DNA of 64,000 nucleotides, taken from assembly GCF_023558375.1 (NCBI RefSeq), contig NZ_CP083761.1:1725001-1789000 (forward strand). The letters are read 5' to 3'. The translations under genes and the position numbers were made by a program. Below are positions 8,172-48,054 of the stretch, one piece after another. A model generated the notes under the pieces. It had not been told where the DNA came from, made no database searches, and saw nothing but the letters and a program-made list of their open reading frames with translations. Source of the DNA: Chroococcidiopsis sp. CCMEE 29 (lineage in GTDB: Bacteria > Cyanobacteriota > Cyanobacteriia > Cyanobacteriales > Chroococcidiopsidaceae). Each line of letters starts with the position of its first letter. The first letter of the stretch is position 1.

Positions 8172-8693
8172 GGGGTTGAGCTGCTTGGCGAGTTAGATTG
8201 ATTGGCGACCATTCAGAGGCGCTCAAACATTAGGCTTTACCTGGGTCAACGCTACATGGGTCTCGGGGATTGAGCTTGGGATTTACACTCTCGGTTAAAT
8301 CTGAACCCAGAAAAATATGGTAACACCCTGGCTAAGGTAATGCAGTTCAATTGCCATAACTCGGATGAACAAGACTATTACTATAAAATTTATTAAATTC
8401 TTTTAGTAGTAGTAGGGGCTGTGGAAATTGTGAAAAAAGTTTGGCAACTCTTTTCTAGCCATCGTTTTGGATACTAAAGGCTGTGGAAAACCTGTGGAAA
8501 AGACTAGGTCTTTTTCCACAAGGTATTTATACTCTGTCAAGTTTTCCACTCAAACCTTTTGGTTTTCCACAGGTTCTTCAACAGTTTTCCACAAAAAAAT
8601 TACTGTTTTTCCACAAACCATCATGTCTTAATCATTCTTTATACTTTTGTTAAGCTTAATGGCTGTGGATAGCTTTAGTAAGTTGAGTTACGT
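8172..8693. other. oriC: Probable chromosomal replication origin (oriC) with DnaA boxes
   Basis: The gene-free spacer between dnaA and dnaN holds a cluster of DnaA-box-like nonamers. TTTTCCACA occurs at 8512-8520, 8563-8571, 8585-8593 and 8607-8615, with TTTTCCACT at 8542-8550. The complement TGTGGAAAA is at 8482-8490 and 8493-8501, and looser TGTGGAAAT/TGTGGATAG at 8420-8428 and 8664-8672. AT-rich tracts at 8380-8405 and 8590-8660 could be the unwinding element. The dnaA-box cluster-dnaN order is the classic bacterial origin arrangement. Confidence 0.85.
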
Positions 8694-28563: not shown

Positions 28564-29622
28564 GGCTCTTTATGGATTCCAGGGATCTAGCTAAGAAGGC
28601 ACTCTAATAGAGATGACAACAGGGTTTTACCCCGTTTTCTGACATTGTGAACGAACTCAAAAAAACCCAAATAGAGCGGCAGTTTATCTTGGGAAATCCC
28701 TCGGTGTGGTCTCAACCAAGAACGTAACAATGACCAGAAGCCTTCCATCGTATTGACGTGGACTTCGTAAAACCCGTCTCCATCCTCGTCCCGAGCATAT
28801 TCCCCTTGTCCATGATTCACTGTCTTGTGACCATATCCCCACTCAGTTATGCGAGCATAGATGCTGTATTCGTCGGTGTAGATGAGCGTACCAGGTGAGA
28901 CCATCTTCTGAATCACAGGTGCAATAGTTGCTTGCTTAAGGTTGGACAGCATCTGCACAACAACCTCTCCTCCTCGCTGAATCATGCCGAAAATGGGAGG
29001 CTTTTCTTGTGCCAATGTTCCTCGCCCTGGCTTGGCTTTCAACCGCCTTGGGCGACCAAGTCGCCCCTTTTTCTCACTTCGGATGGCTGACCTTTGAAAC
29101 CAGCAATCAAGTAGAGTTCGTCCAATTCCACTTCTCCTTTCAAAATGACTTCGGGTTTCTTCTCCACAATGCCCATTCGCAGTTGACAAGTCATCTGCTG
29201 CGCGTCATCCTTGTTCAGGTCGAGTTCTTGAGCAATTTGGTGTGTCGAGAGATTTAAGCCCATCAAGTACAGACAGAGAATCCAGGTCTGCAAGGGCTGA
29301 TGATGACCAGCCAGAATCGTACCACTCAAGTCGTCGAATCGGGAAAGGCATCGCCTGACACTGGTATCGCTGACGATGAGGCTGAGTCTCATCGAAACCT
29401 CGTTTGACCACACGCTGTGAATTACATTTGCTACAAGTTACACCTTCTGACCATCGTAGCTGGCGCACGGTTTCATAGCACTTTTGTTCGTCAATCAAGG
29501 TTTGGAGATTAATCAGCACAGGGATGGTCACAGATTGGTCAGTTCTCGAAGCTAATCAGAGTAGGTATTATACCCTCCTGACTGCCACCGAAACTCTAGA
29601 TCCCTGGAATCCATAAAGAGCC
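28564..29622 (-). mobile_element. IS1595-family insertion sequence
   Basis: 1059 bp bounded by perfect 27-bp inverted repeats (GGCTCTTTATGGATTCC... at the left, its exact complement at 29596-29622). An 8-bp direct repeat TAAAAAAA flanks it at 28556-28563 and 29623-29630, the target-site length typical of IS1595. It sits inside a deoxyribosyltransferase gene. Confidence 0.92.
28587..29531 (-). pseudogene. IS1595-type transposase broken into three frames
   Basis: Reading from 29531: an N-terminal zinc ribbon (CSKCNSQRVVKRG...RYQCQ); a shift near 29370 into the frame RFDDLSGTILAGHHQPLQTWILCLYLMGLN with the DELY catalytic block; then a second shift near 29080 (AGAAAAAGGGG) into KPGRGTLAQEKPPIFG, with YTDEYSIY and ending in HVNTMEGFWSLLRSWL. 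The DDN/E motifs are all visible but not in one chain. Two shifts suggest decay, although the second lies on a slippery A/G run. The IS ends remain perfect. Confidence 0.8.
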
Positions 29623-29925
29623 TAAAAAAATTGCTTTATTGAGAGCGATCGCTACTCCCAGTTCCACCATTACCCCTTCATCGGGTGGCGTCCCGTTGAC
29701 AACAGCAAAAATCCCATCGCAGTTTTTCACATCATTCAAGTCTGCCTGCGCCACACGATATGCCCAGCCTATTTGCGAGAAATCAACTTGATTATTACGT
29801 TTGAATGGCTCCCACACTTCTGCACCCAAAGCCTCTAAAGCTTGAACAATGGGAGGCAACAGCAGCGCCTTTTGCTGCTGCGAGAAACCATAGGGACTAG
29901 CCAGATAGATCGTTTTGCGCGTCAC

Positions 29926-30278
29926 GTTTGCCTCTGATAGGCGTCCTAAGAACCAAGCCGAAATGATTGGTAATATCCGTAGCTATTTACGTAGCACACA
30001 ACGTCAACCTACCATCGTGCAAAACTTCTTTCACGAGAAGCACGTTGCTTATGCAGCCGCTTAAACTGTTCACTATTTATTGGTCTAGTTAGTATTTACT
30101 TAGTGGAACGTCTAAGTCTAGATGCTGTGCGCGATCGTATTCAGGGTATCAGATACACTGCACTGGGAGGACCATTCTGGAACCTTTATGAACTCAAAGT
30201 TGCAGAAAACTGAGAGCCAACTGATTCTTAAGCACATCTAGGCTGGAAACACTTGATTTATCATGCGGAAAAGCTTTT
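29926..30278. other. Gene-poor stretch containing a peptide-binding-protein relic
   Basis: The left 200 bp hold nothing recognised beyond the upstream region of the deoxyribosyltransferase. The right part is the relic described at 30124-30293. Confidence 0.5.
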
Positions 30279-30293
30279 TCACACTGCTCCATG
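30124..30293 (+). pseudogene. Relic: 3' end and downstream leader of a peptide-binding-protein gene
   Basis: Nearly identical to 40698-40862: the last codons AVRDRIQGIRYTALGGPFWNLY...KVAEN and stop, then the spacer with TTTATCATGC (30257-30266) up to the ATG where the next array gene would begin (30291). There the match stops abruptly and the end of the epimerase gene begins. It is a leftover of a longer array now interrupted by unrelated genes. Confidence 0.85.
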
Positions 30294-31235
30294 TGACAGG
30301 CGAGTAGCATCTAGCGTTAAACGAATCTCCTGGTCATAGGAAGTTTTATGGATGGTGCCTAAAAGTTCGTACAGGGCGGTATCGTCTAGAATCACGGGCG
30401 TTGTCCATAAATAATGCATCTCCACGAGTTCGCGGATGAAGGGATCGAATAATCCGATCGCTCGCAACATCAGCTTGTTGGCAACACTAAACCGTGGTGT
30501 TCGTCCTACTTCTGCAAAAATACGCTGAACAAATTCCCGTTGGGTTAGGGTTCCAGCCCCGCCCAGATGCCAGATATGCCCAAAGGTACGCGGTTCCTTC
30601 ACCATCGCTAACACAACCGGACCCACATCTGGGACAAATACGAATTCGTGAGGTGTATTAATCGGACCAATCAACTGCGCCCGTTTCGCTTTAACTGCTG
30701 CCTGAAACGCATCGTACAGAAAGCTGCGCTCAACATGGGGACCATAAAAATCTGGCAGTTTGAGAATCGTACCCCGAATCAAGCCAGCTGCATCGGCTGC
30801 CATTAACACATCTTCCTGTTCTTTCCGCATCCGTCCCTTGAAGGTATGAGGTTCACGAGGATGATCTTCACGAATGCGCTCGCTCTGAGGTCGTCCATAA
30901 GGGTAGACCGTGCCAATGAGCAGTAATTGTCCTACTCCTGCCGCGAACGCTCCTTCCAGGGTTTGCCGCATCAGAAGTGGGTGGAGGTGGAAGTCGGTAT
31001 AGGGCACGCCAACCAGATACACAATCGTCTCAATGTCACGCGCCGCCTCGCGTACAGAGTCTGGTTCATCTGGGTTCCATGTCACGATTTCAGCGAGTGG
31101 ATCGGCTCCAAACCGAGATTGCAACGTGGTACGAGAGCGTCCCACCACTCGATAGGGCTGCCCTGCGGCTCGTAATGCGGCTGCAACACTTTGACCGATC
31201 GCCCCTGCGGCTCCAAATAGTGCAATCTTAACCAT
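30279..31235 (-). CDS. NAD(P)-dependent epimerase/dehydratase-like protein
   Basis: About 318 residues from ATG 31235 (MVKIALFGAAGAIGQSV); a TTG at 31274 would add 13. The Rossmann nucleotide loop GAAGAIGQ is at the N-terminus, IVYLVGVPY follows, and FYGPHVERSFLY is typical of atypical or extended SDR proteins acting on sugars or as regulators. Its final codons and stop lie within the array leader relic, so the C-terminus (SHGAV) was created at that junction. It is divergent from a TetR regulator that probably controls it. Confidence 0.82.
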   Translation of the reverse strand: MVKIALFGAAGAIGQSVAAALRAAGQPYRVVGRSRTTLQSRFGADPLAEIVTWNPDEPDSVREAARDIETIVYLVGVPYTDFHLHPLLMRQTLEGAFAAGVGQLLLIGTVYPYGRPQSERIREDHPREPHTFKGRMRKEQEDVLMAADAAGLIRGTILKLPDFYGPHVERSFLYDAFQAAVKAKRAQLIGPINTPHEFVFVPDVGPVVLAMVKEPRTFGHIWHLGGAGTLTQREFVQRIFAEVGRTPRFSVANKLMLRAIGLFDPFIRELVEMHYLWTTPVILDDTALYELLGTIHKTSYDQEIRLTLDATRLSHGAV

Positions 31236-31266
31236 GACAGCCTTCCCGGTTATTAATGTTTTAATT

Positions 31267-31321
31267 CTGAACAACGTTCAGTGAACTAAGTTTATTTTAT
31301 ATTGACAATTCAGTTTGTCAA
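31267..31321. promoter_or_regulatory. Divergent promoter with two inverted repeats
   Basis: CTGAAC-AAC-GTTCAG (31267-31281) and TTGACA-8-TGTCAA (31302-31321) lie between the divergent epimerase and TetR genes. The second includes a TTGACA -35-like hexamer. These are good candidate operators for the adjacent TetR regulator; binding is inferred. Confidence 0.5.
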
Positions 31322-31362
31322 TCCCTAAACTAAAGAGTCGATTGAAAAAATATTTTGCACTC

Positions 31363-31989
31363 ATGGGAATTTCGGAGCGAAAAGAACGTCAAAAAGCGGA
31401 ACTACGAGAACAGATTCTGAGTGCAGCACGGGAAATTGTACTGCGGGATGGGTTTGCAGCACTGACAATGCGAAAAATTGCCGATGCGATCGAGTACGCA
31501 CCGGCAACGCTCTACCTCTACTTTGAGAACCGCGATGAAATTGCCAAGCAGCTTTGTATTCAGGGCTATCAAGAACTGTTGGATTTCTTGCAACCGGTTG
31601 TGGCGATCCCAGACCCCCGTGACCGATTGATTGTTCTTGCGGAGTCCTATGTTCGCTTTGGCATGACCCATGCCGCCACCTACCGCCTGATTTTCATGGA
31701 AGATCCAAAGATCACCAGTGCGGCACTCGCAGCAGTTCCGATTGATGCCTCAAATGGTCCAGCGATGCAGGCGTTTCAATTGCTTGTACATGTATTTGAC
31801 GACCTGAAAGCGAATCATGGTCTAGTTATGGATGCTGACTCTACTCGGTTTGCTCAGCTATTGTGGACCTCGTTGCACGGTATTGTGAGCTTGAAACTCA
31901 CCTGTTCAAGCTTTCTCGCTACCTCAGCCGAAGAACTGGTTAAAATAATGACTCATACATTTCTTGCAGGATTACCTCAAGACCACTAG
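31363..31989 (+). CDS. TetR/AcrR-family transcriptional regulator
   Basis: 208 residues from ATG 31363; a TTG at 31315 opens the frame but lies in the operator region. The N-terminal helix-turn-helix (ILSAAREIVLRDGFAALTMRKIADAI, then APATLYLYFENRDEIAKQL) is classic TetR. The C-terminal ligand domain resembles the TetR-C WHG-like group. It is transcribed away from the epimerase gene with two palindromes between, so autorepression and control of the epimerase are likely. Confidence 0.92.
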   Translation: MGISERKERQKAELREQILSAAREIVLRDGFAALTMRKIADAIEYAPATLYLYFENRDEIAKQLCIQGYQELLDFLQPVVAIPDPRDRLIVLAESYVRFGMTHAATYRLIFMEDPKITSAALAAVPIDASNGPAMQAFQLLVHVFDDLKANHGLVMDADSTRFAQLLWTSLHGIVSLKLTCSSFLATSAEELVKIMTHTFLAGLPQDH

Positions 31990-32106
31990 TACCGTTCCTC
32001 CACTGCATTGCGCTAGCTGACTCGTTCAGGGCGACGCCAATCCGGTAGGGCGTGTTATTAGTCGATAATGAGAGACAATAGCTCTGAGGGAGAGAGACAA
32101 GTCTAT

Positions 32107-32952
32107 ATGAAAAAACTAATTAAAGGGCTGGGGAAGTTCAAAACTAATTACTTCTCTACTCACTGGGAGCTATTTGAACAACTTGCTCACGGTCAGAAGC
32201 CTAGAGTACTATTCATCACCTGTTCTGACTCCCGTATTGACCCTAACTTGATTACTCAAACTGAAGTAGGGGAGCTATTTGTCATTCGCAATGCCGGCAA
32301 TATTATCCCACCTTATGGCGCAGCCAATGGTGGCGAAGGTGCAACTGTGGAATATGCTATCAATGCCTTGGGCATCGAGCAAATTGTAGTCTGCGGTCAT
32401 TCTCATTGCGGTGCGATGAAAGGACTGCTGCAACTGCATAAACTTCAACAAGAAATGCCTCTTGTTTATGATTGGCTGCAACATGCCGAAGCTACCCGGC
32501 GACTGGTGCAAGAGAACTACAGCAACTATTCGACTGAAGAACTGCTGGAGATTACCGTTGCAGAGAATGTGTTGACCCAAATTGAAAATCTCAAAACTTA
32601 CCCTGTCATCCGCTCGAAGCTGTATCAAGGTAAACTGCAGATTTATGGCTGGATTTATCATCTAGAAACGGGTGAGGTACTGGCATACGACCCCCAAACC
32701 CACGCTTACGTGCCTCCCCAAACCCAAATACTTGACTCTGGCTCCCAACCAGAACCAGCTACAGGTAAATTTGTTAGCATGAGCTCTCCTCTAGTTGCGT
32801 GTGAACTACCTCAGCCGCGTCAACCCGAGCCTCAAGCAGTTGCTGTTCATCAGGGAAATGGTGTCTCTTCCGATACGCTGCCGAGATTATGGCTCTCACC
32901 ACAGCAGGCACAGCGGATCTACGGAGGCTCTACTGCCAGTAGTGAGAGCTAA
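32107..32952 (+). CDS. Beta-carbonic anhydrase (IcfA/CcaA type)
   Basis: 281 residues from ATG 32107 (MKKLIKGLGKFKTNY); the upstream ATG 32068 adds 13 residues unlike the family. Zinc ligands are Cys39 in ITCSDSR, His98 and Cys101 in VVCGHSHCGAM, and Asp41/Arg43 form the catalytic dyad. The C-terminal extension beyond residue 200 (WIYHLETGEVLAYD..., then a low-complexity tail) marks the carboxysomal CcaA/IcfA class. It supplies CO2 to Rubisco from bicarbonate. No ccm genes are adjacent. Confidence 0.9.
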   Translation: MKKLIKGLGKFKTNYFSTHWELFEQLAHGQKPRVLFITCSDSRIDPNLITQTEVGELFVIRNAGNIIPPYGAANGGEGATVEYAINALGIEQIVVCGHSHCGAMKGLLQLHKLQQEMPLVYDWLQHAEATRRLVQENYSNYSTEELLEITVAENVLTQIENLKTYPVIRSKLYQGKLQIYGWIYHLETGEVLAYDPQTHAYVPPQTQILDSGSQPEPATGKFVSMSSPLVACELPQPRQPEPQAVAVHQGNGVSSDTLPRLWLSPQQAQRIYGGSTASSES

Positions 32953-32988
32953 AAACTTGCCCTGTCTACATTAGAGGAATGAAAACTA

Positions 32989-34083
32989 CTACGTCCAGTA
33001 AAGAATAGAAGCCTGCGGAAAGCGCTTGGTGATTTGTTGCTGGAAGAAACGGCGCATTGTCTTCATTGTGTCGCCATTGTATACATACTTCGTGCCGCCA
33101 AACTTGTTGCGCTTGACACTGCGCTTGGCTTCGTCCATGTCCAGCTTCGTTTGAGGATACCAAGATTGCAGGACTTCTTTTGAACCGGGTGTAAAGCGGT
33201 GTGAGATTAGCTCGAAGGTCAGGTCGCAATCGAAATCGAGTGCTTCTGAGATCGAGTCAAATAGCTGCGTGTAATGCAGCTCCCAATCATTCATTAGCAT
33301 AATGGGCGCGATTACCAGACCTACCGGATATCCCCCAACTGCTAGCCGCCGTAAGGCTTGAAGTCGTGCTGTGACAGATGCCGTGCCACCCTCGAACCGA
33401 CCGGCAACTGGTGCAGCATTTACGCTGACACGGCAGCGCGTGTGACCGTTGTGTGGCAAGTCAAGCAGATTGTCCACTGCATCAAACTTGGAAACCCAGC
33501 GCAGATAACCGTCTTGACGTGTCCCAAAGTAGCGAATGCATTCAGCCAGGCTACCTGTTAGATGTTCAATGCCCAAGGGATCGGTGTAGCAACTGACCTC
33601 AAAACTCGTGGCATCGCTTGGGCGTTCATAGGCTGCCAGATTTGCCAAGATTTGCGGCAAGTTGGCGAAGACGCGGATTACTGGCGGACCTTGCAAGCTA
33701 CCCGCCAGATAGCAATATTGGCAGTGCGCTGGACAGCCTTCTGCAATGTGAAACTGCCAGTCAGCGGAAGGCGGGATAGGACTAAGCTTGAAAGCACTCG
33801 GTGGTGCGGTTACGATCGCCAGGGTGCGCTTAGCAATGTCGTAGGTGGCGCGATCGTCAGCGCCACGCAGACCCGTCAAGCGATTTCGAGGCAGTTCCTC
33901 AATCGGTAAATTAAGCGATTGTATCCGTGCCAGAATTTGCTGACCCCACGGCTCTTCTAGTGCAGCAGGTGTGAACATTACACGCTCAGGCATCCACAAA
34001 CGTGCCTTATGCATTGGCTCCAGCGGCATCAGCTTGTTGTCTATTGTTACAACCATTCTTTGCGTTGACTCGGTTTTTATCAA
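32989..34083 (-). CDS. Radical SAM protein, spore-photoproduct-lyase family
   Basis: 364 residues. The radical SAM cluster motif is EGCPAHCQYCYL (CxxxCxxC, near 114-125). The flanking FHIAEGC and SVNAAPVAGRFEGGTASVTARLQALRRLAVGGYPVGLVIAPIM segments match the SPL family, which reverses spore photoproduct thymine lesions in Bacillus. Cyanobacteria do not form such spores, so the substrate may be another lesion or unknown. It is convergent with carbonic anhydrase and 64 bp after the RemA-like gene in the same direction. Confidence 0.85.
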   Translation of the reverse strand: MIKTESTQRMVVTIDNKLMPLEPMHKARLWMPERVMFTPAALEEPWGQQILARIQSLNLPIEELPRNRLTGLRGADDRATYDIAKRTLAIVTAPPSAFKLSPIPPSADWQFHIAEGCPAHCQYCYLAGSLQGPPVIRVFANLPQILANLAAYERPSDATSFEVSCYTDPLGIEHLTGSLAECIRYFGTRQDGYLRWVSKFDAVDNLLDLPHNGHTRCRVSVNAAPVAGRFEGGTASVTARLQALRRLAVGGYPVGLVIAPIMLMNDWELHYTQLFDSISEALDFDCDLTFELISHRFTPGSKEVLQSWYPQTKLDMDEAKRSVKRNKFGGTKYVYNGDTMKTMRRFFQQQITKRFPQASILYWT

Positions 34084-34145
34084 GGAAAAGACGATAGCAA
34101 GAAACAGAGAAACCGTTTACTTGCTATCTAAATTCAACTGAGTGC

Positions 34146-34502
34146 TTATTCTTCGACGACTTCGCGGATACGCCGCTCTAAACGTTCAAGATCAAGCCCG
34201 CCTTCGTCACGAACGATCCGGCGTACAGTCGTGTTAACGTTGTTCAAATCGAGCAGTAAATCGTGCAGAATCTCCTGCTGCTGACGTGACTGGGTAACTT
34301 CACGCGGTTCTTGCACAAGGTCACGCACAATTGAGTCCTCAGCACGTGAGGCAATGATTGGGTCTGCTTGCCCTTGTAAGTGGACAAATGTTCGTCGACC
34401 CGGTCCACGCTCTTCCTCAATCGGGATAACTGCCGTCACCTGATCTGAGCGTACATACTTTCCAAATCCCAGATGGATCAGCACCGATGACTGTATTCTC
34501 AT
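34146..34502 (-). CDS. RemA/DUF370-like small protein
   Basis: 118 residues. The first 65 (VLIHLGFGKYVRSDQVTAVIP, then RTFVHLQGQADPIIASRAEDSIVRDL) resemble the RemA/DUF370 fold, whose family signature is a (I/L)GFGN.V....VAIV start followed by beta strands. The tail is a long charged helix. RemA proteins bind DNA in Bacillus matrix genes; the assignment here is by pattern only. It lies upstream of the SPL-like gene with a 62-bp gap and may be cotranscribed with it. Confidence 0.5.
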   Translation of the reverse strand: MRIQSSVLIHLGFGKYVRSDQVTAVIPIEEERGPGRRTFVHLQGQADPIIASRAEDSIVRDLVQEPREVTQSRQQQEILHDLLLDLNNVNTTVRRIVRDEGGLDLERLERRIREVVEE

Positions 34503-34803
34503 TTAGCAAAGCATTATTCTGTGATATTTCTATTATGAATGGTAAAAAGGTTACCCAGAGTTCATAAGCAGAGCGGGTTTTGCAACATTTCTGGTAGTGT
34601 TTCCCCCTAAGTTTTTATACTGTTTATCCGAAGCAAAAATTCCAGTAGTTCTATCAGCACAGTAGCCTCACAACTTCTTAGAAGCTTGTTTAGAAACGTT
34701 ACAATTCTGGTTTTACATTAAGAAATATTGCAACTATTTGCTTTTCTTGTTAGCTTGTGAATAACAGAATGGTTGCTAAGTACTTTTACTCAAAGGAGGC
34801 TTA
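34503..34803. other. Intergenic region upstream of two divergent genes
   Basis: 301 bp, AT-rich, no gene recognised. It must hold promoters for the minus-strand RemA-like gene and the plus-strand small membrane gene. Confidence 0.4.
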
Positions 34804-35022
34804 ATGCTTCTCCCCTTGTTAATCTTCGCTACTATGTTGTTTGGTGGCTGGGTATTTGCTGCCATCATCCTTGGTGTCAGTGACGCTGGCGAATCAGCTC
34901 AACCGTCTATTATCCCAGATGGGCAGGTTTCGCTCTGGTCATTTATCTGCTTTCTCTTATTCCCTTCGTTTAATGCACCTCCTTCGCTACCGCCGCGACC
35001 AACATACTCAATCAGGGATTAA
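34804..35022 (+). CDS. Small membrane protein, unknown
   Basis: 72 residues. An excellent ribosome site (AAAGGAGGC) ends 4 bases before the ATG, which is why I accept the ORF. Residues 2-24 are a hydrophobic helix (LLPLLIFATMLFGGWVFAAIILGV), there is a second weaker one near 43-55, then a Pro-rich tail. No family is recognised. Confidence 0.55.
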   Translation: MLLPLLIFATMLFGGWVFAAIILGVSDAGESAQPSIIPDGQVSLWSFICFLLFPSFNAPPSLPPRPTYSIRD

Positions 35023-35125
35023 GACTATTAACCGCCGTCGGTGTGTCGGAGGTTGTAAAAAACGGCTGTGGAGGTCAGTCAAACAGGAATTACGCAACTT
35101 ATAGTCCTATAAGGTTCAAGGTGAA

Positions 35126-35431
35126 TTAGTAGTGGTAGCGAGCTTGCAAAAAGTCTATTCGATCATGCCTTACCCTGTAGACTAGCCGATTTTCCAAGTC
35201 AATGCGACGCGACTACATATCAGAGTCTATGTGCTTAAGTGGTTCTGGCTTGCCTAACCCCTCGAAGGGATGCTTCATTGTGTCGGTGACTAAATCAAAA
35301 ATCCTGTCTACTTTTCTCGGGGTAGTTTTGTACCACCAGCCTAAATCTTCTTTAAATTGAGGGCTAAAATTCGGGAAGCAGCTAACCGGTTGAAGAGGCT
35401 CAGATTTTGGTTGCTTCTTTTTCTTCGTCAA
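35126..35431 (-). pseudogene. YoeB/Txe-type toxin with an internal amber codon
   Basis: The frame NFSPQFKEDLGWWYKTTPRKVDRIFDLVTDTM is a Txe/YoeB ribosome-dependent RNase. It stops at TAG (35213-35215), exactly where family members carry Trp in the DMW-SRRID block. Beyond the stop the same frame continues SRRIDLENRLVYRV...IDFLQARYHY, including the catalytic His and Tyr end, to a normal TAA at 35126. So one TGG-to-TAG change removes the catalytic C-terminus. The start overlaps the antitoxin gene by 32 bp. Confidence 0.85.
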
Positions 35432-35717
35432 TCCCCAACTCCTGCTTAAGTTCGGCGATCGCGCCTTTAAGTGTCTTTGGCTCTAATTGTTCCTGATCTT
35501 GCGATTTTGACCATTCCAAAGCGCTCAATAGACGTGCCGCATTTTTAGGGGAGTGCAGCAGGTAAGCTGTCTCCCTGAGGCTTGCTAGCTCATCTTCTGC
35601 AATCAGCGCCACGCTTGGCTTGTTACGACGCTCGATCACAATCACTTCTCTATCGTCCACAGCTTTATCCATCAAGCTAGCTAGATTTTCACGCGCTTTT
35701 GTGTATGTAATTTGCAT
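35400..35717 (-). CDS. Phd/YefM-family antitoxin
   Basis: 105 residues. The N-terminal Phd/YefM DNA-binding fold is clear: MQITYTKARENLASLMDKAV followed by VIVIERRNKPSVALIAEDELASLRETAYLL. The C-terminal part is an acidic toxin-wrapping helix. It is encoded first, overlapping the YoeB-like gene, the usual TA order with autoregulation by the antitoxin. Since the toxin is truncated, the antitoxin is probably under relaxed selection or acts against another toxin. Confidence 0.92.
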   Translation of the reverse strand: MQITYTKARENLASLMDKAVDDREVIVIERRNKPSVALIAEDELASLRETAYLLHSPKNAARLLSALEWSKSQDQEQLEPKTLKGAIAELKQELGIDEEKEATKI

Positions 35718-35802
35718 CTTCTAGTTGATGTCCCGGTTTCTTGTACATGTCCAGATTACCTGTCCATATTGTAGCAACAGTCGCCAAGTGTAAAATCTAG
35801 AA

Positions 35803-35838
35803 TTTATCATGCAATAAAAGACTTGGTGATGTTGCCAG
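35803..35838 (+). promoter_or_regulatory. Conserved leader before peptide-binding-protein genes (copy 1)
   Basis: TTTATCATGC lies 26 bases before the ATG of the first array gene. The same decamer is 24 bases before the ATG of the second (38962-38971) and third (40826-40835) genes and before the missing gene of the relic (30257-30266). No standard Shine-Dalgarno is visible, so the block may be a binding site or leader structure. Confidence 0.6.
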
Positions 35839-37644
35839 ATGTTCTCTGCCGTTTTTCCTGCAGCTATACTCCATCGTTGGTTTTTGGTGTCGCTGGCATT
35901 TGTGGTAGCGATCGCCCTTTCTGGGTGCAACCCAGCTGCCTTTAAAACTCAAGCAGCACAAGTACCGCAAATAGTAATTAGTGTTACGACCGATCCGCAA
36001 ACCTTTAACTATGCTCTGAATCAACAATCACCCAGCATTTTTAGTCTCACATTTAAGGGTTTAACCACTGTCAATGGTGTTACAGGTGAGATTGAGCCAG
36101 AATTAGCTGAATCTTGGCAGACTTCAGATGACAAACTACGAGTTCTTTTTAATCTCAGAGAAGGGTTGAAATGGTCAGACGGTCATCCACTTACGGCAGA
36201 TGATGTAGTTTTCACGTATGAGCAAATAGTCTTCAACAAGGAGCTTCCTACCGATCTTGGTGATTATGTAAAAATCGGTGCAAGTGGGTCTTTTCCTAAG
36301 GTCAGAAAGATTGATGACCGCCGAGTTGAATTTCTCATGCCAGAGCCGTTTTCTCCTTTTCTCAGAACAACTACAGCCGAACCGACAAGTGCGATCGCTA
36401 TCCTGCCAAAACACGCTTTAGAAGCATCTATAAAAGCCAAGGATGTCAACGGTAATTCCCGGTTTTTTTCTACTTGGGGAACAGATACCAACCCAGCAAA
36501 AATTGTTGTTAATGGTCCTTATAGAATAGAAAGTTACCGTCCTAGTCAGCGCTTGGTATTTCGGCGTAACCCTTATTACTGGAGGAAGGATGTTCAAGGC
36601 AATCCTCAGCCTTACGTTGAGCGCCTAATCTGGCAAATAGTTGAATCAACTGAGACATCTTTAATCCAGTTTCGCTCAGGTGGGTTAGATATAGTTTCTG
36701 CGTCGGCTGATAATTTCTCTCTGCTAAAACGCGAAGAGAAGCGGGGTAATTTTACTATTTATAACGGTGGTCCAGCATTCGGCACAAGATTTATTACTTT
36801 TAATTTGAATAAAGGTAAGCGAAACGGTCGCCCTTTAGTAGATCCAATCAAATCTCGTTGGTTTAATACAGTTGCTTTTAGACAAGCAGTCGCATGTGCC
36901 ATTGATCGTCAAGCTATAATTAACAACCTTCTGCGGGGTCTGGGTGTACCGCAACATTCACACATTGATATTCAAAACCCCTACTACTTGTCTCCCGAGG
37001 AGGGTCTAAAGATCTACGATTACAATCCAGAAAAAGCAAAAGAATTACTATTAGGGGCAGGATTCAAGTACAACAATCAAGGTCAGTTACTTGATACTGA
37101 CGGCAACCGCGTGCGCTTCACAATGCTTTCTAGTGCCGGAAGCAGGGTCAGTGATGCCCTGACTTCGCAGATTAAGCAAAATTTAAGCAAAATCGGCATC
37201 CAAGTAGATTTACAGCCAATTGCCTTCTCTGTGTTGGGAGAAAAGCTGCATAACTCGCTTGATTGGGAATGTTATCTTGGAGCCTTGATTGGAGGAGGAA
37301 TTGAGCCGAATGATGCGGCAAATGTTTGGGCGCTTGATGGTGGTTTACACAGCTTTAATCAAGCACCAATGCCAGGACAATCAGCAATCGAGGGAAGAGA
37401 AATAGCAGATTGGGAACAAAAGATTGCAGATCTCTTTATTCAGGGGGCGCAGGAGTTTGATGAAACCAAGCGTAAAGCGATCTACGATGAAACGCAGCGT
37501 CTTGCCCAAGAGTATCTACCCTATATTCACCTGATTACTCCCTTGTCTATGGCTGCTATCCGCGATCGCCTCCAAGGAGTGAAATTCTCTGCTTTCGCGG
37601 GAGCATTCTGGAACATCTACGAACTCAAAGTTTTAGATAAATAA
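35839..37644 (+). CDS. Peptide-type ABC transporter substrate-binding lipoprotein, array member 1
   Basis: 601 residues of the SBP_bac_5 (DppA/OppA) family. A signal segment WFLVSLAFVVAIALSGCNPA has a lipobox (LSGC). The core then runs EPELAESWQTSDD, LKWSDGHPLTADDVVFTYE and RQAVACAIDRQAIINNL, all typical. It captures oligopeptides or similar solutes outside the inner membrane. No permease or ATPase genes are in the window, so it must share a transporter elsewhere. Two near-identical paralogues follow. Confidence 0.93.
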   Translation: MFSAVFPAAILHRWFLVSLAFVVAIALSGCNPAAFKTQAAQVPQIVISVTTDPQTFNYALNQQSPSIFSLTFKGLTTVNGVTGEIEPELAESWQTSDDKLRVLFNLREGLKWSDGHPLTADDVVFTYEQIVFNKELPTDLGDYVKIGASGSFPKVRKIDDRRVEFLMPEPFSPFLRTTTAEPTSAIAILPKHALEASIKAKDVNGNSRFFSTWGTDTNPAKIVVNGPYRIESYRPSQRLVFRRNPYYWRKDVQGNPQPYVERLIWQIVESTETSLIQFRSGGLDIVSASADNFSLLKREEKRGNFTIYNGGPAFGTRFITFNLNKGKRNGRPLVDPIKSRWFNTVAFRQAVACAIDRQAIINNLLRGLGVPQHSHIDIQNPYYLSPEEGLKIYDYNPEKAKELLLGAGFKYNNQGQLLDTDGNRVRFTMLSSAGSRVSDALTSQIKQNLSKIGIQVDLQPIAFSVLGEKLHNSLDWECYLGALIGGGIEPNDAANVWALDGGLHSFNQAPMPGQSAIEGREIADWEQKIADLFIQGAQEFDETKRKAIYDETQRLAQEYLPYIHLITPLSMAAIRDRLQGVKFSAFAGAFWNIYELKVLDK

Positions 37645-38095
37645 TGGTTATTTTTTCTGGCTTGAGTTGCGCCTAGGACATTAGTGCATCCTTCCAATCT
37701 GCAACGCTAGATTTTTGACCTTAAAGGATCTGCAAAATGGGTGTTGTTAAATTAAGCTAATGTTTGCAATACCAATGAAAATCACTTACTAATCAGTATC
37801 CTCTATTTATTCAGGCATATTTATGCAATAAAGCCTGAATTTTAACCATTGAATAATCTTTTGGTTGCCTAGTCTTTACCTAAACAACTTAGGTTAACAC
37901 TGAGGGTTTGAAATTCCTGCCTTGAAACATTGATCAAATTCCTATCTACTAAGGCATCTTAACCCTACCTCAGCAGGCAGCTATAGCAGACCAGAAGCAC
38001 TTTTGACCATAGGCGGACGAAACATTGGAAGACTGCTGAGTTACGCTGTATGGCTCAAGGCGCTACCCGCACTAAGAAGTATTGGAGGGATTCAA
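37645..38095. other. Intergenic region, nothing recognised
   Basis: About 450 bp after the first array gene without similarity to the other spacers of the array. No gene or RNA was recognised. Confidence 0.4.
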
Positions 38096-38710
38096 ATGTA
38101 CATTCGTGCTAACTCAAAACTTTGGACTTTACCACTTTCTGTAGCATCCACTGTCCTTGTAGGAAGTCTCAGCCTAATTATCTCGCCAGCAGTTGCTCAG
38201 GAGCAGCCTGGTCAGCCGACCCAGCAGGGGTATCAGTGTCGTGGTGTCGAACCAGGTGCTGATGTTAATACCGATCTCTCTAAAGTCCCACCCCCAGTGT
38301 TGGAAGCAGCTCGACAAGCTGCTGGAGATGTTCAACTCGCGAGCTACAACTCTGAGAAAGAGGACACTGGCTTAGTCTATGAGTTTCAAGGTGTCCAGGC
38401 AAATGGTTGTGGCTTAGAAGTTGATGTTCTTGAGTCAGGTCAGGTAGATGAGATCGAGCGGGAAATTACGCCTGCTGAACTTCCTCAGCCAGTCACTGCT
38501 ACCCTGAATCAAAAGTATCCAGAACTCGCGTTTTCTTTTATCGAGGAAAGCACAAGACCTGACCGTCAGCCATCTCCAGTTTATGAAATCGAGGGTAAGA
38601 CTGCTCAAGGGCAGGCTATCGAGCTGGAGATTGATGCCCAAGGCAACATAATAACCCAAGAACAACAAGAACAAGCAGGACAAGGAGGACAACCAGGACA
38701 AGCGCAATAA
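38096..38710 (+). CDS. Exported PepSY-like protein
   Basis: 204 residues from ATG 38096 (TTGGAGGGA upstream), with a signal peptide (LPLSVASTVLVGSLSLIISPAVAQ, cleavage after AVAQ). Two similar modules follow, VLEAARQAAGDVQLASY... and VTATLNQKYPELAFSFIEES..., each with the VYE(F/I)(E/Q)G...(E/D)(L/V) pattern of PepSY-like domains. The tail is Gln/Gly-rich (QEQQEQAGQGGQPGQAQ). Probably periplasmic; PepSY domains often inhibit peptidases, which would fit peptide uptake next door, but that is inference. Confidence 0.7.
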   Translation: MYIRANSKLWTLPLSVASTVLVGSLSLIISPAVAQEQPGQPTQQGYQCRGVEPGADVNTDLSKVPPPVLEAARQAAGDVQLASYNSEKEDTGLVYEFQGVQANGCGLEVDVLESGQVDEIEREITPAELPQPVTATLNQKYPELAFSFIEESTRPDRQPSPVYEIEGKTAQGQAIELEIDAQGNIITQEQQEQAGQGGQPGQAQ

Positions 38711-38745
38711 GCACCTACCCATCCGCTTGGGGTTTGAACTCCAAG

Positions 38746-38839
38746 CTAATAGCGCAAGTCATCTTTAGATGACTTAAAAGCCATCGTTAGTCCACTAAGC
38801 GTGGACTTTTGCTATTAGCCTCAGACTCAAGTCTGAGGC
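38746..38839. repeat. Three-hairpin palindromic element
   Basis: CTAATAGC (38746) closes with GCTATTAG (38811-38818). Inside are two perfect hairpins, AAGTCATCT/AGATGACTT (38756-38775) and AGTCCAC/GTGGACT (38789-38807). Immediately after comes GCCTCAGACT/AGTCTGAGGC (38818-38839). This folds as a branched structure plus a hairpin, as in palindrome-associated or REP-like mobile repeats. Confidence 0.8.
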
Positions 38840-38961
38840 GGACAAAAGCGTGGTGCAAGATTTGAGCCTGAATTCAGCAAAACCAAGGTTTTTTCTAACC
38901 CGCGCAGGTGAGTTCTGCTTGTGTAACCACAACTTACAGTCGTCAGGTGTAAGATATGGAG

Positions 38962-38995
38962 TTTATCATGCAGAAAGATTATGTGAAATTACCAA
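38962..38995 (+). promoter_or_regulatory. Conserved leader (copy 2)
   Basis: TTTATCATGC followed by AGAAAGATT and 15 more bases, then the ATG at 38996. It shares the decamer and spacing with the leaders at 35803, 40826 and 30257; the upstream GTGTAAGATATGGA also resembles copy 1. Confidence 0.6.
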
Positions 38996-40783
38996 ATGCT
39001 CTCCGCTGTTTTCCCTAAAGTTATACTGCGTCGTTGGTTCTTGGTTTTGCTAGCGTTTTTGGTGGCGATCGCTCTCAGCAGTTGCAATCCTGCTAATTTT
39101 AGAACTGCAGCCGCTCAAGTTCCTCAATTGATCGATAGTACTCTGGGTGACCCCAAAACCTTCAACTATGCCCTGAGTCAAGAGTCACCAAACGTTTTTA
39201 GTTACATTTATGAGGGATTAATCGGAGAAAACGGCAAAGGTGAAATAGAACCGACCCTAGCTGAATCTTGGGAAATTGCAGAGGACAAAAAGCGGATTGT
39301 TTTTACCATGCGAGAGGGGCTGAAGTGGTCCGATGGTGAGCCGTTAACAGTAGACGATGTAGTTTTTACCTACAACGACATTTACTTTAATGAAAAGATT
39401 CCCACTGATATCAGAGATATTCTCAGGATTGGAAAAAATCGCCTTCTGCCAAGTGTACGTAAACTGGATGAACGGCGGGTTGAATTTACTGTTCCAGAGC
39501 CTTTTGCTCCCTTCCTGCGCTATACAGGATTAGCGATCTTACCTGCCCATGCATTACGCGAATCAGTTAATACTAAAGACTCGGGAGGTAACCCCAATTT
39601 TCTGTCTATGTGGGGAACGAATACAGATCCGAAACAAATTGTTGGCAATGGTCTTTACAAGCTGGAGAGCTACACACCGAGCCAACGGGTGATATTTCGA
39701 CGAAACCCTTACTACTGGCGCAAGGATGCTCAGGGCAACCCACAGCCATATATTGAGCGCATCGTCTGGCAAATTGTGGAAAATACAGATACATCTCTTA
39801 TACAGTTTCGCTCTGGGGGCTTGGATACTCTGAGTATCACACCGGAATATTTTTCCCTACTCAAGCAGGAGGAGAAGCGAGGGAAATTTAGGATCTACAC
39901 TGGTGAACCAGAGCTGAGTACGACTTTTTTGGTTTTCAACTTGAATAAAGCCAAAAATTCTAACAATCAACCCCTAGTAGACCCGATCAAGTCTCGCTGG
40001 TTCAATAAATTGGAGTTTCGACAGGCAGTTGCCCACGCCATTGACCGTCAAAGAATGCTTAACAATCTTTATCGAGGGCTGGGAGAACCGCAAAACTCAC
40101 CCATATATAAGCAAAGCCCCTACTATTTATCTCCAGAGCAGGGTTTGAAGGTCTACGACTACGATCCACAAAAAGCTAAGGAACTGCTGAAAAAAGCAGG
40201 TTTTAAGTACAATACCAAAGGTCAACTTTTTGACGCAGATGGCAATCGGGTACGCTTTACGATGTTAACGAATGCAGGTAATAAACTGCGAGAAGCTATC
40301 GGCGCTCAGATTAGGCAAGATCTAAGCCAAGTTGGTATACAAGTAGATTTTAATGCGATCAACTTTAATACTCTAGTCGAACAGGTATATGGTCGGCGGC
40401 AATGGGATAGTTACATCGGCAAAATTGGCGGTGGTGGCGTAGAGCCTAACGGTGGAGCAAACACTTGGACAACGACAGGTGGGTTACATACCTTTAACCT
40501 GGCATCCCAGCCTGGAGAGCCGCCCTTGATTGGCTGGAAAGCGGCGGACTGGGAGAAGAAAATAGAAGAGCTTTACATTCAAGGTGCTAGCAAACTTGAT
40601 GAAAATAAGCGTAGAGCGATCTATGTCGAAAGCCAACGCATTACTCAGGAAAATTTACCATTTATTTATTTAGTCAATCCGCTGACGATGGAGGCAGTGC
40701 GCGATCGCGTTCAGGGTATCAGATACACTGCACTGGGAGGACCATTCTGGAACCTTTATGAACTCAAAGTTGCAGAAAACTGA
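38996..40783 (+). CDS. Peptide-type ABC transporter substrate-binding lipoprotein, array member 2
   Basis: 595 residues, paralogue of member 1 along its whole length. The N-terminus MLSAVFPKVILRRWFLVLLAFLVAIALSSCNPA has a lipobox LSSC. Shared blocks include GLKWSDGEPLTVDDVVFTY, RVIFRRNPYYWRKDAQGNPQPYIERIVWQIVE and RFTMLTNAG. Its 3' end and following spacer are the source type of the relic at 30124-30293. Predicted extracytoplasmic peptide receptor without adjacent permease. Confidence 0.93.
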   Translation: MLSAVFPKVILRRWFLVLLAFLVAIALSSCNPANFRTAAAQVPQLIDSTLGDPKTFNYALSQESPNVFSYIYEGLIGENGKGEIEPTLAESWEIAEDKKRIVFTMREGLKWSDGEPLTVDDVVFTYNDIYFNEKIPTDIRDILRIGKNRLLPSVRKLDERRVEFTVPEPFAPFLRYTGLAILPAHALRESVNTKDSGGNPNFLSMWGTNTDPKQIVGNGLYKLESYTPSQRVIFRRNPYYWRKDAQGNPQPYIERIVWQIVENTDTSLIQFRSGGLDTLSITPEYFSLLKQEEKRGKFRIYTGEPELSTTFLVFNLNKAKNSNNQPLVDPIKSRWFNKLEFRQAVAHAIDRQRMLNNLYRGLGEPQNSPIYKQSPYYLSPEQGLKVYDYDPQKAKELLKKAGFKYNTKGQLFDADGNRVRFTMLTNAGNKLREAIGAQIRQDLSQVGIQVDFNAINFNTLVEQVYGRRQWDSYIGKIGGGGVEPNGGANTWTTTGGLHTFNLASQPGEPPLIGWKAADWEKKIEELYIQGASKLDENKRRAIYVESQRITQENLPFIYLVNPLTMEAVRDRVQGIRYTALGGPFWNLYELKVAEN

Positions 40784-40825
40784 GCCAATTGATTCTTAAG
40801 AAGATCCCAGGCTGGAAACACTCAG

Positions 40826-40859
40826 TTTATCATGCGGAAAAGTTCTGTCACACTGCCCC
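40826..40859 (+). promoter_or_regulatory. Conserved leader (copy 3)
   Basis: TTTATCATGC with GGAAAAG and a CACACTGCC block just before the ATG at 40860; 24 bases separate the decamer and the ATG. It is almost the same as the relic leader at 30257-30290. Confidence 0.6.
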
Positions 40860-42667
40860 ATGATTTCTGCTGTCTTACTGCATTTGCGCCGTTGGCTTTC
40901 TATTCTTCTAGCATTTGCTATAGCTCTAACTTGTCAGCTTACCCTGACTAGTTGTAACCCCACCCAATTCAAAACTGAAGCGGCGCAAGTTTCCCAATGG
41001 GTCACTACCACTCTTAGCGATCCTAAAACCTTTAACTACGCCTTTAATCAAGAGTTTCCTCATGTTTTTCTCTTTACTGCTGAAGGGTTAACCACGCTCA
41101 ATGCCATCACCGCAGAAATTGAGCCAGCTTTAGCCGAATCCTGGGAGATCTCTGATGATAAGCAGATTGTTTTTACCTTGCGGGAGGGTTTGAAATGGTC
41201 AGACGGTGAACCACTCACAGCAGATGATGTGGTTTTCACCTATCAGGACGTGATTTTTAACGAACAAATTCCCACTGATTGGAAAGATTCCCTCAAAATT
41301 GGTGGTGCTTTTCCAAAGATCCGAAAAATAGACGATCGCCGCGTTGAATTTATTCTCCCTGAGCCTTTTGCTCCCTTCCTCAGCACTACTACAGGAGGAA
41401 CAACAAGTTCAGTTGGTATTTTGCCAAAACATGCTCTCCAAGAATCTGTAAACTTTAAAGATTCAAGGGACAACCACAGTTTCTATCTACTTGGGGCACA
41501 AGTACTGACCCCGCCAAAATTATTGTTAATGGACCTTATAAAATAGAAAGTTATACTCCTAGTCAGCGCGTAGTATTTCGGCGTAACCCTTACTACTGGC
41601 GCAAAGATGCACAGGGCAATCAATTGCCTTATGTTGAGCGGATTGTTTGGCAAATTATTGAATCCACTGATACAACTGTGCTGCAATTTCGCTCTAGGGG
41701 ATTGGATGCCATCGAAGTCTATCCTGAAAATTTCTCCCTACTTAAGCGCGAAGAAAAGCGGGGCAGATTTACTATTTACAATGGTGGACCAAGATTTAGC
41801 AAAACTTTTATTACTTTCAATCTTAATAAAGGTCGGCGGCAAAATGGACAACCCCTGGTAGATCCGATTAAATCCCGTTGGTTTAATACGCTGGCATTTA
41901 GACAAGCGATCGCTCATGCGATAGATCGTCAAACTATGCTGAATAACGTCTTTCGGGGCGTTGGTACGTTACAAGATTCACCGATTGATATTCAAAGTCC
42001 TTACTACCTGTCTCCAGAACAAGGGTTGAAGGTATACGATTACAACCCACAAAAGGCGAGGGAATTACTATTAGGAGCAGGATTTAAATATAACTCTAGA
42101 GGTCAGTTGCTGGATGCTGACGGTAATCGAGTTCGCTTTTCTCTGATTACGAATGCTGAGAATAAAACTCGTGTGGCAATGGGAGCGCAGATTAGGTACG
42201 ACCTGAGCAAAATCGGCATTCAAGTTGATTACAATCCAATCAGTTTCAACATCCTTGTAGACAAACTCTCCAACTCCCTCGATTGGGAATGCCATTTGCT
42301 AGGCTTTACTGGTGGAGTTGAGCCACATGATGCAGCTAATGCCTGGTTGCCTGATGGGGGATTGCATAGTTTCAATCAAAAACCACAACCAGGACAAGAA
42401 CCTCTGATTGGACAGGAGGTGGCAAATTGGGAAGCAGAAATTGGTCATCTCTACATCCAAGCAGCAGGAGAGTTAGACGAAGCTAAGCGCAAAGAAATTT
42501 ATGCTGAAACGCAACGCCTCTCACAGGAATATTTACCTTACATTTACACGGTGAATCCACTGGCTTTAGCAGCAGTGCGCGATCGCTTACAAGGAGTGAA
42601 ATACTCTGCCCTCGGTTCTCAAGGAGGAACGCTTTGGAACAAGTACGAACTTAAAGTGACACAATAG
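40860..42667 (+). pseudogene. Peptide-type substrate-binding protein, array member 3, with one-base frameshift
   Basis: The first 205 codons give a signal/lipobox (LTLTSCNPT) and the family N-domain, then the frame breaks near 41481-41484 and the old frame stops at 41546. The continuing frame reads FLSTWGTSTDPAK and runs on as a normal family protein to 42667. The paralogue has one more T in the run at that point, so a single-base deletion explains it; total length is 1808 bp, one short of a multiple of three. It is either a recent pseudogene or a sequencing error. Confidence 0.85.
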
Positions 42668-43003: not shown

Positions 43004-44290
43004 TTGACATCCTCACCGGGCTGAAGCCACGGTGATTCCAAAAATCACTTCTTGGATCTTTCTGCTTCATAGCAACTGCCATCAGACTTATGCCTTTGCG
43101 GTCTTATGTTCGCTCCACAGACTTTCACCGCAAGCCCTGCGGCGAGTATGTTTTTGGCTGCATTTACATCTCGGTCATGGTGCGTTCCACACTTGGGGCA
43201 ATTCCATTCCCGGATATTAAGAGGCAGCTTTTCAACGATATGCCCACACTCAGCACATCGCTTAGAACTCGGAAACCATCGGTCAATCTTGACGAAGTTT
43301 CGACCATACCAGTCGCACTTGTACTCAAGTTGCCTGACCAATTCCCCCCAACTCGCATCGAAGACCGAGAGAGCCAGATTCCGGTTCTTGACCATATTCT
43401 TCACACCCAAATCCTCAACGGCAATGGTTTGGTTCTCACGCACCAATTGAGTCGTCAACTTGTGAAGGAAATCTTTTCTGGTATCACCAATCTCTTGATG
43501 CACTTTAGCGACTTTGAGCCGAGCTTTGTAACGATTGTTAGATCCTTTTTGTTTACGGCTCAACCCCTTGTGAGCTTTCCTTAGCTTGCGGCGTTTTGCC
43601 TCAAACCCCTTGGGATTGGCAACCTTTTCACCCGTACTCAGAGCGACTAAACTCGTCACTCCCAAGTCAACTCCAATTTGATTCGCAGACTCAGGTAATG
43701 GTTCAATCTCGACATCCATCAGCAGCGATACCGTCCATCTTCCGGCAGCAGAGAGCTTCAGCGTGACGGTGGAAGGTTCAACACCTTCTGGCAAATCTCG
43801 ACTCCACACAATTGGCAAGGGTTCAGCGGATTTCGCCAAGTAAACTTGACCGTCTTTGAACTTGAACGCCGACTTAGTGAACTCAGCGCTACCGCCATGG
43901 CGCTTCTTCTTAAACTTGGGGTATGCTGCCCGACCGGCGAAGAAATTGCCAAACGCGGATTGTAGATGGCGCAAACCCTGTTGCAATGGGACACAGCTGA
44001 CTTCGTTCAGGAACTGAAGGCTTTCTTCCCTTTTCCAGCCAGTCAACAGCGCAGAAGTCTCAACGTACCCAACCCGTTCTTGTCTTTCGTACCATGCCTC
44101 TGTTCTAGCGGCAAGGGCGCGGTTATAAACAAGACGAGTGCATCCAAGCGTTCTCCTGAGCAAAGATTCCTGCTCAGGAGTTGGATAGAATCGGTACTTG
44201 AAAGCTTTTTGTGTCATACTCACATTTTAGCATCTATTTTGTGAAGTGTGTTAATTTCAATATAAAGCCGTCTTTAAAGACGGGGTTTCC
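43004..44290 (-). mobile_element. TnpB-only IS200/IS605-type element no. 2
   Basis: Right end at 43004-43040 (minus strand ...CACCGTGGCTTCAGCCCGGTGAGGATGTCAA) with a CACCG/CGGTG stem. Left end at 44260-44290 with the perfect hairpin CCGTCTTTAAAGACGG (44268-44283). The left end is alike in sequence to that of element 3 at 57938. No TnpA. Boundaries are approximate. Confidence 0.75.
43045..44217 (-). CDS. tnpB: RNA-guided endonuclease TnpB (element 2)
   Basis: About 390 residues from ATG 44217 (MTQKAFKYRFYPTPEQESLLRRTLGCTRLVYN, the classic OrfB start); a GTG two codons earlier is possible. RuvC residues: GVDLGVTSLVAL (Asp), VEDLGVKNMVKN (Glu) and HDRDVNAAKNI (Asp); zinc ribbon CAECG...CPKCG. 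It is intact and different enough in sequence from elements 1 and 3 to belong to another subgroup. It carries no transposase of its own. Confidence 0.94.
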   Translation of the reverse strand: MTQKAFKYRFYPTPEQESLLRRTLGCTRLVYNRALAARTEAWYERQERVGYVETSALLTGWKREESLQFLNEVSCVPLQQGLRHLQSAFGNFFAGRAAYPKFKKKRHGGSAEFTKSAFKFKDGQVYLAKSAEPLPIVWSRDLPEGVEPSTVTLKLSAAGRWTVSLLMDVEIEPLPESANQIGVDLGVTSLVALSTGEKVANPKGFEAKRRKLRKAHKGLSRKQKGSNNRYKARLKVAKVHQEIGDTRKDFLHKLTTQLVRENQTIAVEDLGVKNMVKNRNLALSVFDASWGELVRQLEYKCDWYGRNFVKIDRWFPSSKRCAECGHIVEKLPLNIREWNCPKCGTHHDRDVNAAKNILAAGLAVKVCGANIRPQRHKSDGSCYEAERSKK

Positions 44291-47160: not shown

Positions 47161-48054
47161 TCACTTCTTTGACTGCAGAAATTCCCGTACAACTTCTTTG
47201 ATATCCCGCAGTTCGCCTTCCACCTGGTAATTCAAGCGCCGCATCTCTTCCTCATTAATTAGTCCACCCAGTTGAGCGATCGCCTGTCGTAGTTTTGGAT
47301 GCTTTTTCAAGGTTGCTTGGCGGACAATCGGAGCCGCTTCATAAGGCGGAAAATACTGCCGATCGTCCTTGAGAATTGCTAAATCCAACCGCGCAATTTG
47401 TCCGTCGGTTGAGTTGCCAGCCACTATATCCACCTGCTTCTCAACCAGCGCCCGATACATCAATCCCAAATCCATCACGCGCGGCGGTCTAGCAAACTCT
47501 AGCCCATAGGTTTTAGCCAATCCTGGAAATCCATCTTCGCGTTGGAGAAACTCGTAGCCAAAACCAGCCTGCCACTGGGGTGTATACTGAGCTACTTGCG
47601 AGAGAGTTTGAAGATTGCGTGCTCTAGCATCTGCACCACGCACAATCATGGCGAAGGTATTTTCAAACCCTAATGGCTGAGTTACTTCTAGACCAAACTG
47701 CTTGGCATATCCTGCTTTTACCTGCTGGTAAACAGTCTTGGGGTTACCAACCGGCTTTTGTTTCAAAATGGCAGTGAAGGCTGTGCCTGTGTATTCAATA
47801 TAGGCATCAATTTTACCAGCAGTGATTGCTTGATGGCAAACAAACGTTCCACCCAGATGTAGACGACGGTCTACTTTGAGTCCCGTGGTTGATTCAATTT
47901 GCTGTGCCAGAAGTTCGCCTAAAATATCTTGTTCAGTGAAGTCTTTTGAAGCTACGACAATATCACCGCCACCAGATGAAATATTGGGGTTGCAGCTGGC
48001 GATCGCCAAGATCAAGCTGAAGGTAAGTAGGCAAAGAACAAAAAATCTTTTCAT
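47161..48054 (-). CDS. Osmoprotectant/glycine-betaine-type ABC substrate-binding lipoprotein
   Basis: 297 residues. Signal plus lipobox LILAIASCNPN, then the OpuAC/OsmF-type periplasmic domain: IVVASKDFTEQDILGELLAQQIE, YIEYTGTAFTAIL, and FARPPRVMDLGLMYRALVEKQVDIVAGNSTDGQI. It binds a small quaternary amine or choline-like solute. No permease or ATPase gene is beside it, so the transporter partner is elsewhere. Monocistronic, with a 148-bp gap to the HAD gene. Confidence 0.9.
   Translation of the reverse strand: MKRFFVLCLLTFSLILAIASCNPNISSGGGDIVVASKDFTEQDILGELLAQQIESTTGLKVDRRLHLGGTFVCHQAITAGKIDAYIEYTGTAFTAILKQKPVGNPKTVYQQVKAGYAKQFGLEVTQPLGFENTFAMIVRGADARARNLQTLSQVAQYTPQWQAGFGYEFLQREDGFPGLAKTYGLEFARPPRVMDLGLMYRALVEKQVDIVAGNSTDGQIARLDLAILKDDRQYFPPYEAAPIVRQATLKKHPKLRQAIAQLGGLINEEEMRRLNYQVEGELRDIKEVVREFLQSKK

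What the first reader, a model, noticed from the sequence alone, without database searches (positions are those of the whole stretch)
30124..42667. Broken array of four paralogous peptide-binding lipoproteins
Three full-size SBP_bac_5 lipoprotein genes (35839, 38996, 40860) and a relic at 30124-30293 share coding ends and leaders. The relic matches up to the ATG where another copy would begin, and then unrelated genes (epimerase, TetR, carbonic anhydrase, radical SAM, TA pair) fill the gap to the first intact copy. No permease or ATPase is present. This suggests expansion of a receptor set feeding a distant transporter, then insertion of about 5.5 kb into the array.
Basis: partly seen in the sequence, partly recalled or inferred. 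Interest (0 to 1): 0.6.

Follow-up and report, generated by a model that had tools for sequence, protein, structure and literature searches.

The report
Rearranged cyanobacterial peptide-receptor gene array
A cyanobacterium carries a small tandem family of peptide-capturing surface lipoprotein genes that has been moved, partly broken and recombined, leaving a 200-base scrap of a lost fourth family member beside unrelated genes; this is ordinary turnover of a known kind of gene family with an unusually readable fossil.

Summary
The relic is real. Window 30093-30293 is 86% identical over 202 columns to the B-C junction of the array and cannot be chance (score 283; best shuffle 39). Three corrections apply. 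(1) The third copy (C, 40860-42667) is frameshifted, so only A and B are intact. (2) The relic is not just a copy of B. Its first 46 nt encode a tail motif (LVER) seen only in one other paralogue clade, "D" (28 of 36 D tails, none of 115 others). The next 72 nt are identical to B, and its spacer matches only the leader of C. It is a fossil D-C junction. B itself has a D-like tail, so B and D recombined at their 3' ends. (3) A single 5.5-kb insertion into the array is not supported. In relatives A comes first, and neither D nor C precedes it. The block is a patchwork: epimerase-TetR is foreign, while the lyase pair and antitoxin segment are native genes that lie elsewhere in relatives. In several relatives the array lies between trmD-ispF and larB; here those loci sit at 0.3, 1.76 and 4.4 Mb, so the whole array has moved. 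Verdict: known kind of receptor array, well-documented rearrangement, modest interest.

The parts
30093..30293 (+). relic: last ~39 codons of a D-type SBP gene, its stop, the D-C spacer, and the ATG of a lost C-type copy
   Evidence: alignment to 40663-40862, 173/202 columns; LVER motif only in D clade; best nucleotide match outside the genome is the Scytonema D gene L056, 83% over 119 nt
30140..30211 (+). 72-bp tract identical to the tail of B (conversion or crossover tract)
   Evidence: segments 70% / 99% / 83% identity; run of 72 reached in 6 of 200000 permutations
30279..30293 (-). stop codon and last four codons of the epimerase ORF lie inside the relic: breakpoint at 30293/30294
   Evidence: orthologue tails L180/L182 end differently from the same point
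30279..31274 (-). NAD-dependent epimerase, 3' end replaced by relic sequence
   Evidence: PF01370; absent from the 59 other relatives searched and from 387 of 390 other genomes of the order
31315..31989 (+). TetR-family regulator, divergent partner of the epimerase
   Evidence: PF00440; same divergent pair in L180
32068..32952 (+). beta-type carbonic anhydrase
   Evidence: PF00484
32989..34083 (-). spore photoproduct lyase-type radical SAM protein
   Evidence: PF20903, TIGR04070 (below its curated cut-off); at other loci in 15 of 18 family relatives
34146..34502 (-). 118-aa protein paired with the lyase gene
   Evidence: pair conserved at 70-77% nt in relatives away from the array
35400..35717 (-). 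Phd/YefM antitoxin; 35124-35717 as a whole is conserved at other loci in relatives
   Evidence: PF02604; 72-76% nt matches at distant loci
35839..37644 (+). SBP copy A, intact, 601 aa lipoprotein
   Evidence: PF00496; groups with same-family A copies
38003..38710 (+). PepSY-domain protein in the 1.35-kb gap between A and B
   Evidence: PF03413; A is followed by a 7-75 bp spacer in relatives
38996..40783 (+). SBP copy B, intact, 595 aa; body of B type
   Evidence: groups with copies from other families, 82% aa to G056
40710..40783 (+). D-like 3' tail of B
   Evidence: YTALGG tail in 23 of 36 D copies and otherwise only this B; body/tail identity to L056 D 66%/85%
40784..40859 (+). B-C spacer, homologous to the relic spacer, with TTTATCATGC leader motif
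40860..42667 (+). SBP copy C, broken by a frameshift near 41468-41546
   Evidence: C clade of the same family

Best explanation
This is a cyanobacterial tandem array of orphan peptide-type substrate-binding lipoproteins in which paralogues are gained, lost and recombined. Shown by sequence: the array is at an unusual chromosomal site; A and C are the native copies of the family; B groups with copies from other families; a 200-bp fossil of a fourth paralogue (D) with the spacer leading to a C-type copy lies 5.5 kb upstream; and B and the fossil share a 72-bp identical 3' tract although they differ on both sides of it. Inferred: the ancestor carried a D-C unit; B and D exchanged their 3' ends by homologous recombination, leaving B with a D-like tail in front of C; a second D-C unit was then destroyed by illegitimate joins, one of them precisely to the 3' end of an incoming epimerase-TetR unit; other native genes were assembled next to it during the same or later rearrangements. 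Function (inferred from family knowledge): the lipoproteins capture oligopeptides or similar ligands in the periplasm and hand them to a shared Opp/Dpp-type permease encoded elsewhere.
For: Relic is non-random and the only other close SBP sequence in the genome. D identity from a diagnostic motif (28 of 36 D tails, 0 of 115 others), profile scores and nucleotide match to Scytonema D. D followed directly by C in L056 and L077. C-specific leader. B tail is D-like: YTALGG otherwise only in D; body 66% and tail 85% to L056 D, a contrast above the 99th percentile of between-genome controls. Epimerase lost its own stop at the relic edge. Relocation: trmD-ispF, array and larB at 0.297, 1.76 and 4.41 Mb in this genome but together in several relatives. 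Dispersed OppB/OppC/ATPase genes.
Against: The D assignment rests on about 46 nt of diagnostic sequence. The tail of B is almost as close to the B orthologue of G056 (83% nt) as to Scytonema D (85%), so the direction of exchange is uncertain. No same-genus genome was available, so order and timing of events are not resolved. There was no general excess of tail similarity between copies within one genome, so tail exchange is not a demonstrated general mechanism. Ligand and permease partner are untested.
Confidence: 0.7

Rival explanations
1. One reading: one intact array relic-A-B-C was split by a single insertion of about 5.5 kb.
For: The relic is in the same orientation and 5.5 kb upstream of A; the block is missing from arrays of relatives.
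Against: The relic leader is C-type, not A-type; A is first in every array that contains it; nearly all of two genes (D body, C body) would also have to be deleted; the block has mixed origins; no terminal repeats flank the gap.
Confidence: 0.12
2. Tandem duplication of a whole array (D-C followed by A-B-C) and later decay and insertion inside the first unit.
For: Explains a D-C junction upstream of A and the duplicated C leader (83% identical).
Against: No relative shows two units; no other remnants of the first unit remain in the genome.
Confidence: 0.25
3. The relic is a small dispersed duplication of the B-C junction that simply decayed by mutation; the D-like motif is chance.
For: Overall 86% identity; B is the closest sequence.
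Against: Differences are strongly clustered (6 of 200000 permutations); the 5' part stays in frame and gives a D-specific peptide; Scytonema D matches it over the full 119 nt.
Confidence: 0.13

Closest known systems
Multi-receptor oligopeptide (Opp) ABC systems, e.g. Borrelia burgdorferi Opp with five binding proteins sharing permeases and ATPases (PMC5736914)
   Same: Several paralogous SBP_bac_5-type lipoproteins, apparently more receptors than permeases
   Different: Here no permease or ATPase is adjacent, partners are scattered over several Mb, and sharing of a permease is untested
Conserved cyanobacterial SBP arrays of one to four copies (Chroococcidiopsidaceae, Aphanothece, Scytonema, Nostoc loci)
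   Same: Homologous copies, same orientation, mostly short spacers
   Different: This array has left the trmD-ispF/larB context, holds a B copy atypical for its family, has a frameshifted C and a 1.35-kb insert between A and B

Membership tests
SBP_bac_5 (PF00496) substrate-binding proteins | Match to the Pfam model above its curated cut-off | tested here: met
   A 273.6, B 285.5, C piece 118.2 bits against a cut-off of 32.4
SBP_bac_5 (PF00496) substrate-binding proteins | Lipoprotein signal with lipobox cysteine | tested here: met
   Read by eye: ALSGC in A, ALSSC in B, LTSC in C near residues 30-32; no signal predictor was run
Complete Opp/Dpp ABC importer locus | Permease and ATPase genes adjacent to the receptor | tested here: not met
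   None among the ORFs at 30-43 kb scanned; OppB with its own SBP at 3.65 Mb, OppC at 4.75 Mb, oligo_HPY ATPases at 2.88 and 5.48 Mb
Opp-type receptors | Peptide binding | not testable with these tools
   Nearest PDB sequences are oligopeptide-, dipeptide- and nickel-binding proteins; NCBIfam Opp4A and NikA models match well below cut-off
Array split by one insertion | Left and right flanks of the insert rejoin into an array order seen in relatives | tested here: not met
   C-type leader on the left, A leader on the right; such an order is not seen in relatives

The most novel reading that the evidence does not exclude
Receptor replacement by tail recombination: in tandem SBP arrays an incoming receptor can take over the position of a resident by crossing over within its conserved 3' end, keeping the resident's last ~24 codons and downstream spacer. 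B here would be such a product and the relic the unrecombined resident.
Probability: 0.35. Interest if true: 0.4.

Novelty: new member of a known kind. Interest (0 to 1): 0.3.

Why it matters
It shows step by step how receptor repertoires of a presumably shared importer turn over in cyanobacteria: paralogue gain from other families, 3'-end exchange, frameshift loss and relocation. It also points to a conserved neighbourhood (cphA-cyanophycinase-trmD-ispF-SBP array-larB) in several lineages that could guide work on the ligands of these receptors, for which no direct study was found here.

Tried and rejected
Single 5.5-kb insertion: rejected on leader type and on array orders in relatives. Terminal inverted repeats around the gap: none found. 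Residual array sequence at the ispF or larB loci of this genome: none found. General tail-conversion hot spot in SBP arrays: within-genome pairs show no excess (mean -0.007 against 0.001). Plasmid origin of the block: only a 135-bp match to a Chroococcidiopsis plasmid. Structured RNA or tRNA at the breakpoints: no Rfam or tRNA hit in the window. Literature on these arrays: four searches gave no direct study.

Full report
Setting. The window is G000:C1:1725001-1789000 of a 6.39-Mb genome whose family includes Aliterella- and Gloeocapsa-like genomes (Chroococcidiopsidaceae). No other genome of its genus was held, so the closest comparisons are between genera.

Observation. A (35839-37644, 601 aa) and B (38996-40783, 595 aa) are intact SBP_bac_5 lipoproteins. 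C (40860-42667) is broken by a frameshift; its two parts are separate ORFs and separate hits. The relic aligns from 30093 to 30293 with 40663-40862, score 283 against a shuffle maximum of 39. Genome-wide, B finds only A, C, this relic and one remote SBP at 3.65 Mb.

What the relic is. Identity to B-C falls into three parts: 32/46, 72/73 and 69/83 columns. A run of 72 matches is reached in 6 of 200000 permutations. The first part is in frame and reads IYLVERLSLDAVRDR. Among 151 tails, LVE[R/G/S] occurs in 28 of 36 D-clade tails and in none of the other 115. Profile scores place this part with D (31 against 21 for B) and the same part of B with B (42 against 28). The best nucleotide match outside the genome is the D gene of Scytonema hyalinum, 83% over 119 nt, where D is followed directly by C. 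The relic spacer matches the leader of C (score 111) but not the leaders of A or B (27 each, within shuffle range). The relic is therefore a D-C junction.

B is probably a chimera. Its body groups with copies from other families (G056 82% aa, Aphanothece 81%) and not with X, the middle copy of several members of its own family. Its tail carries YTALGG, otherwise found only in 23 D copies. Against Scytonema D the body is 66% and the tail 85% identical; against the Aphanothece B orthologue 82% and 71%; against the G056 B orthologue 79% and 83%. The last figure keeps the direction of exchange uncertain. Within-genome pairs in general show no tail excess, so this is a local event and not a rule.

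The block 30294-35800. The epimerase is absent from the 59 other relatives and present in only 3 other genomes of 391 in the order; its nearest homologue also has the divergent TetR. Its stop codon and last four codons lie in relic sequence, and homologues diverge from it at that point. This places an illegitimate join at 30293/30294. The lyase gene and its 118-aa partner are conserved in family relatives at other loci. The antitoxin segment 35124-35717 is likewise elsewhere in relatives. The block is a mosaic.

Relocation. In several relatives the order is cphA, cyanophycinase, trmD, ispF, SBP array, larB (LarB named; cphA, cyanophycinase, trmD and ispF named from their sequences and my own knowledge). 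In this genome cphA-cyanophycinase-trmD-ispF is at 0.297 Mb without an array, larB is at 4.41 Mb and the array is at 1.76 Mb. Among arrays that hold A, A is first (A-X, A-X-C, A-B-D). A D-C-A order interrupted by one insertion is therefore not supported.

How it works (inference from family knowledge). SBP_bac_5 lipoproteins bind peptides, nickel chelates or similar ligands and deliver them to an Opp/Dpp-type importer. Nearest PDB sequences are oligopeptide-, dipeptide- and nickel-binding proteins. The genome has an OppB-like permease with its own SBP and an ATPase at 3.65 Mb, one OppC at 4.75 Mb, and oligo_HPY ATPases at 2.88 and 5.48 Mb. Sharing of a permease by several receptors is known, for example in Borrelia (PMC5736914, abstract as listed), but is untested here.

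Verdict. Real relic, partly right interpretation, ordinary kind of gene family; the value lies in a readable record of receptor-array turnover.

Noticed in passing
window 28564-29624: IS1595-family element with about 27-bp terminal inverted repeats (GGCTCTTTATGGATTCCAGGGATCTAG) and an 8-bp target duplication TAAAAAAA, apparently inserted in a nucleoside 2-deoxyribosyltransferase gene (remaining part 29596-29925); its transposase is split over several frames.
   Followed up: partly
window 38735-38850: Hairpin-rich sequence between the PepSY gene and B resembling the end of an IS200/IS605-type element; one copy in the window.
   Followed up: partly
window 43045-44223 and 59218-60126: TnpB-type (IS200/IS605) proteins flanking the array region; the first lies about 380 bp downstream of C.
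   Followed up: no
window 45066-46808 and 47161-48054: Gamma-glutamyltranspeptidase and a glycine-betaine-type substrate-binding protein just downstream of the array; GGT would release dipeptides from glutathione, a possible ligand source, but the adjacency may be chance.
   Followed up: no
L119, L120, L122-L124, L127, L135, L172: SBP array sits next to cyanophycin synthetase, cyanophycinase, trmD and ispF, with larB downstream in several of these; a conserved neighbourhood across families.
   Followed up: partly
G010:C134 (L172 8272-14280): A family relative with an A-middle-C array in which A and the middle copy also look broken (stops and frameshifts) and a gene lies between the middle copy and C; the genome is an incomplete assembly.
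   Followed up: no
window 7032-10076: dnaN and dnaA lie close together about 20 kb left of the relic.
   Followed up: no
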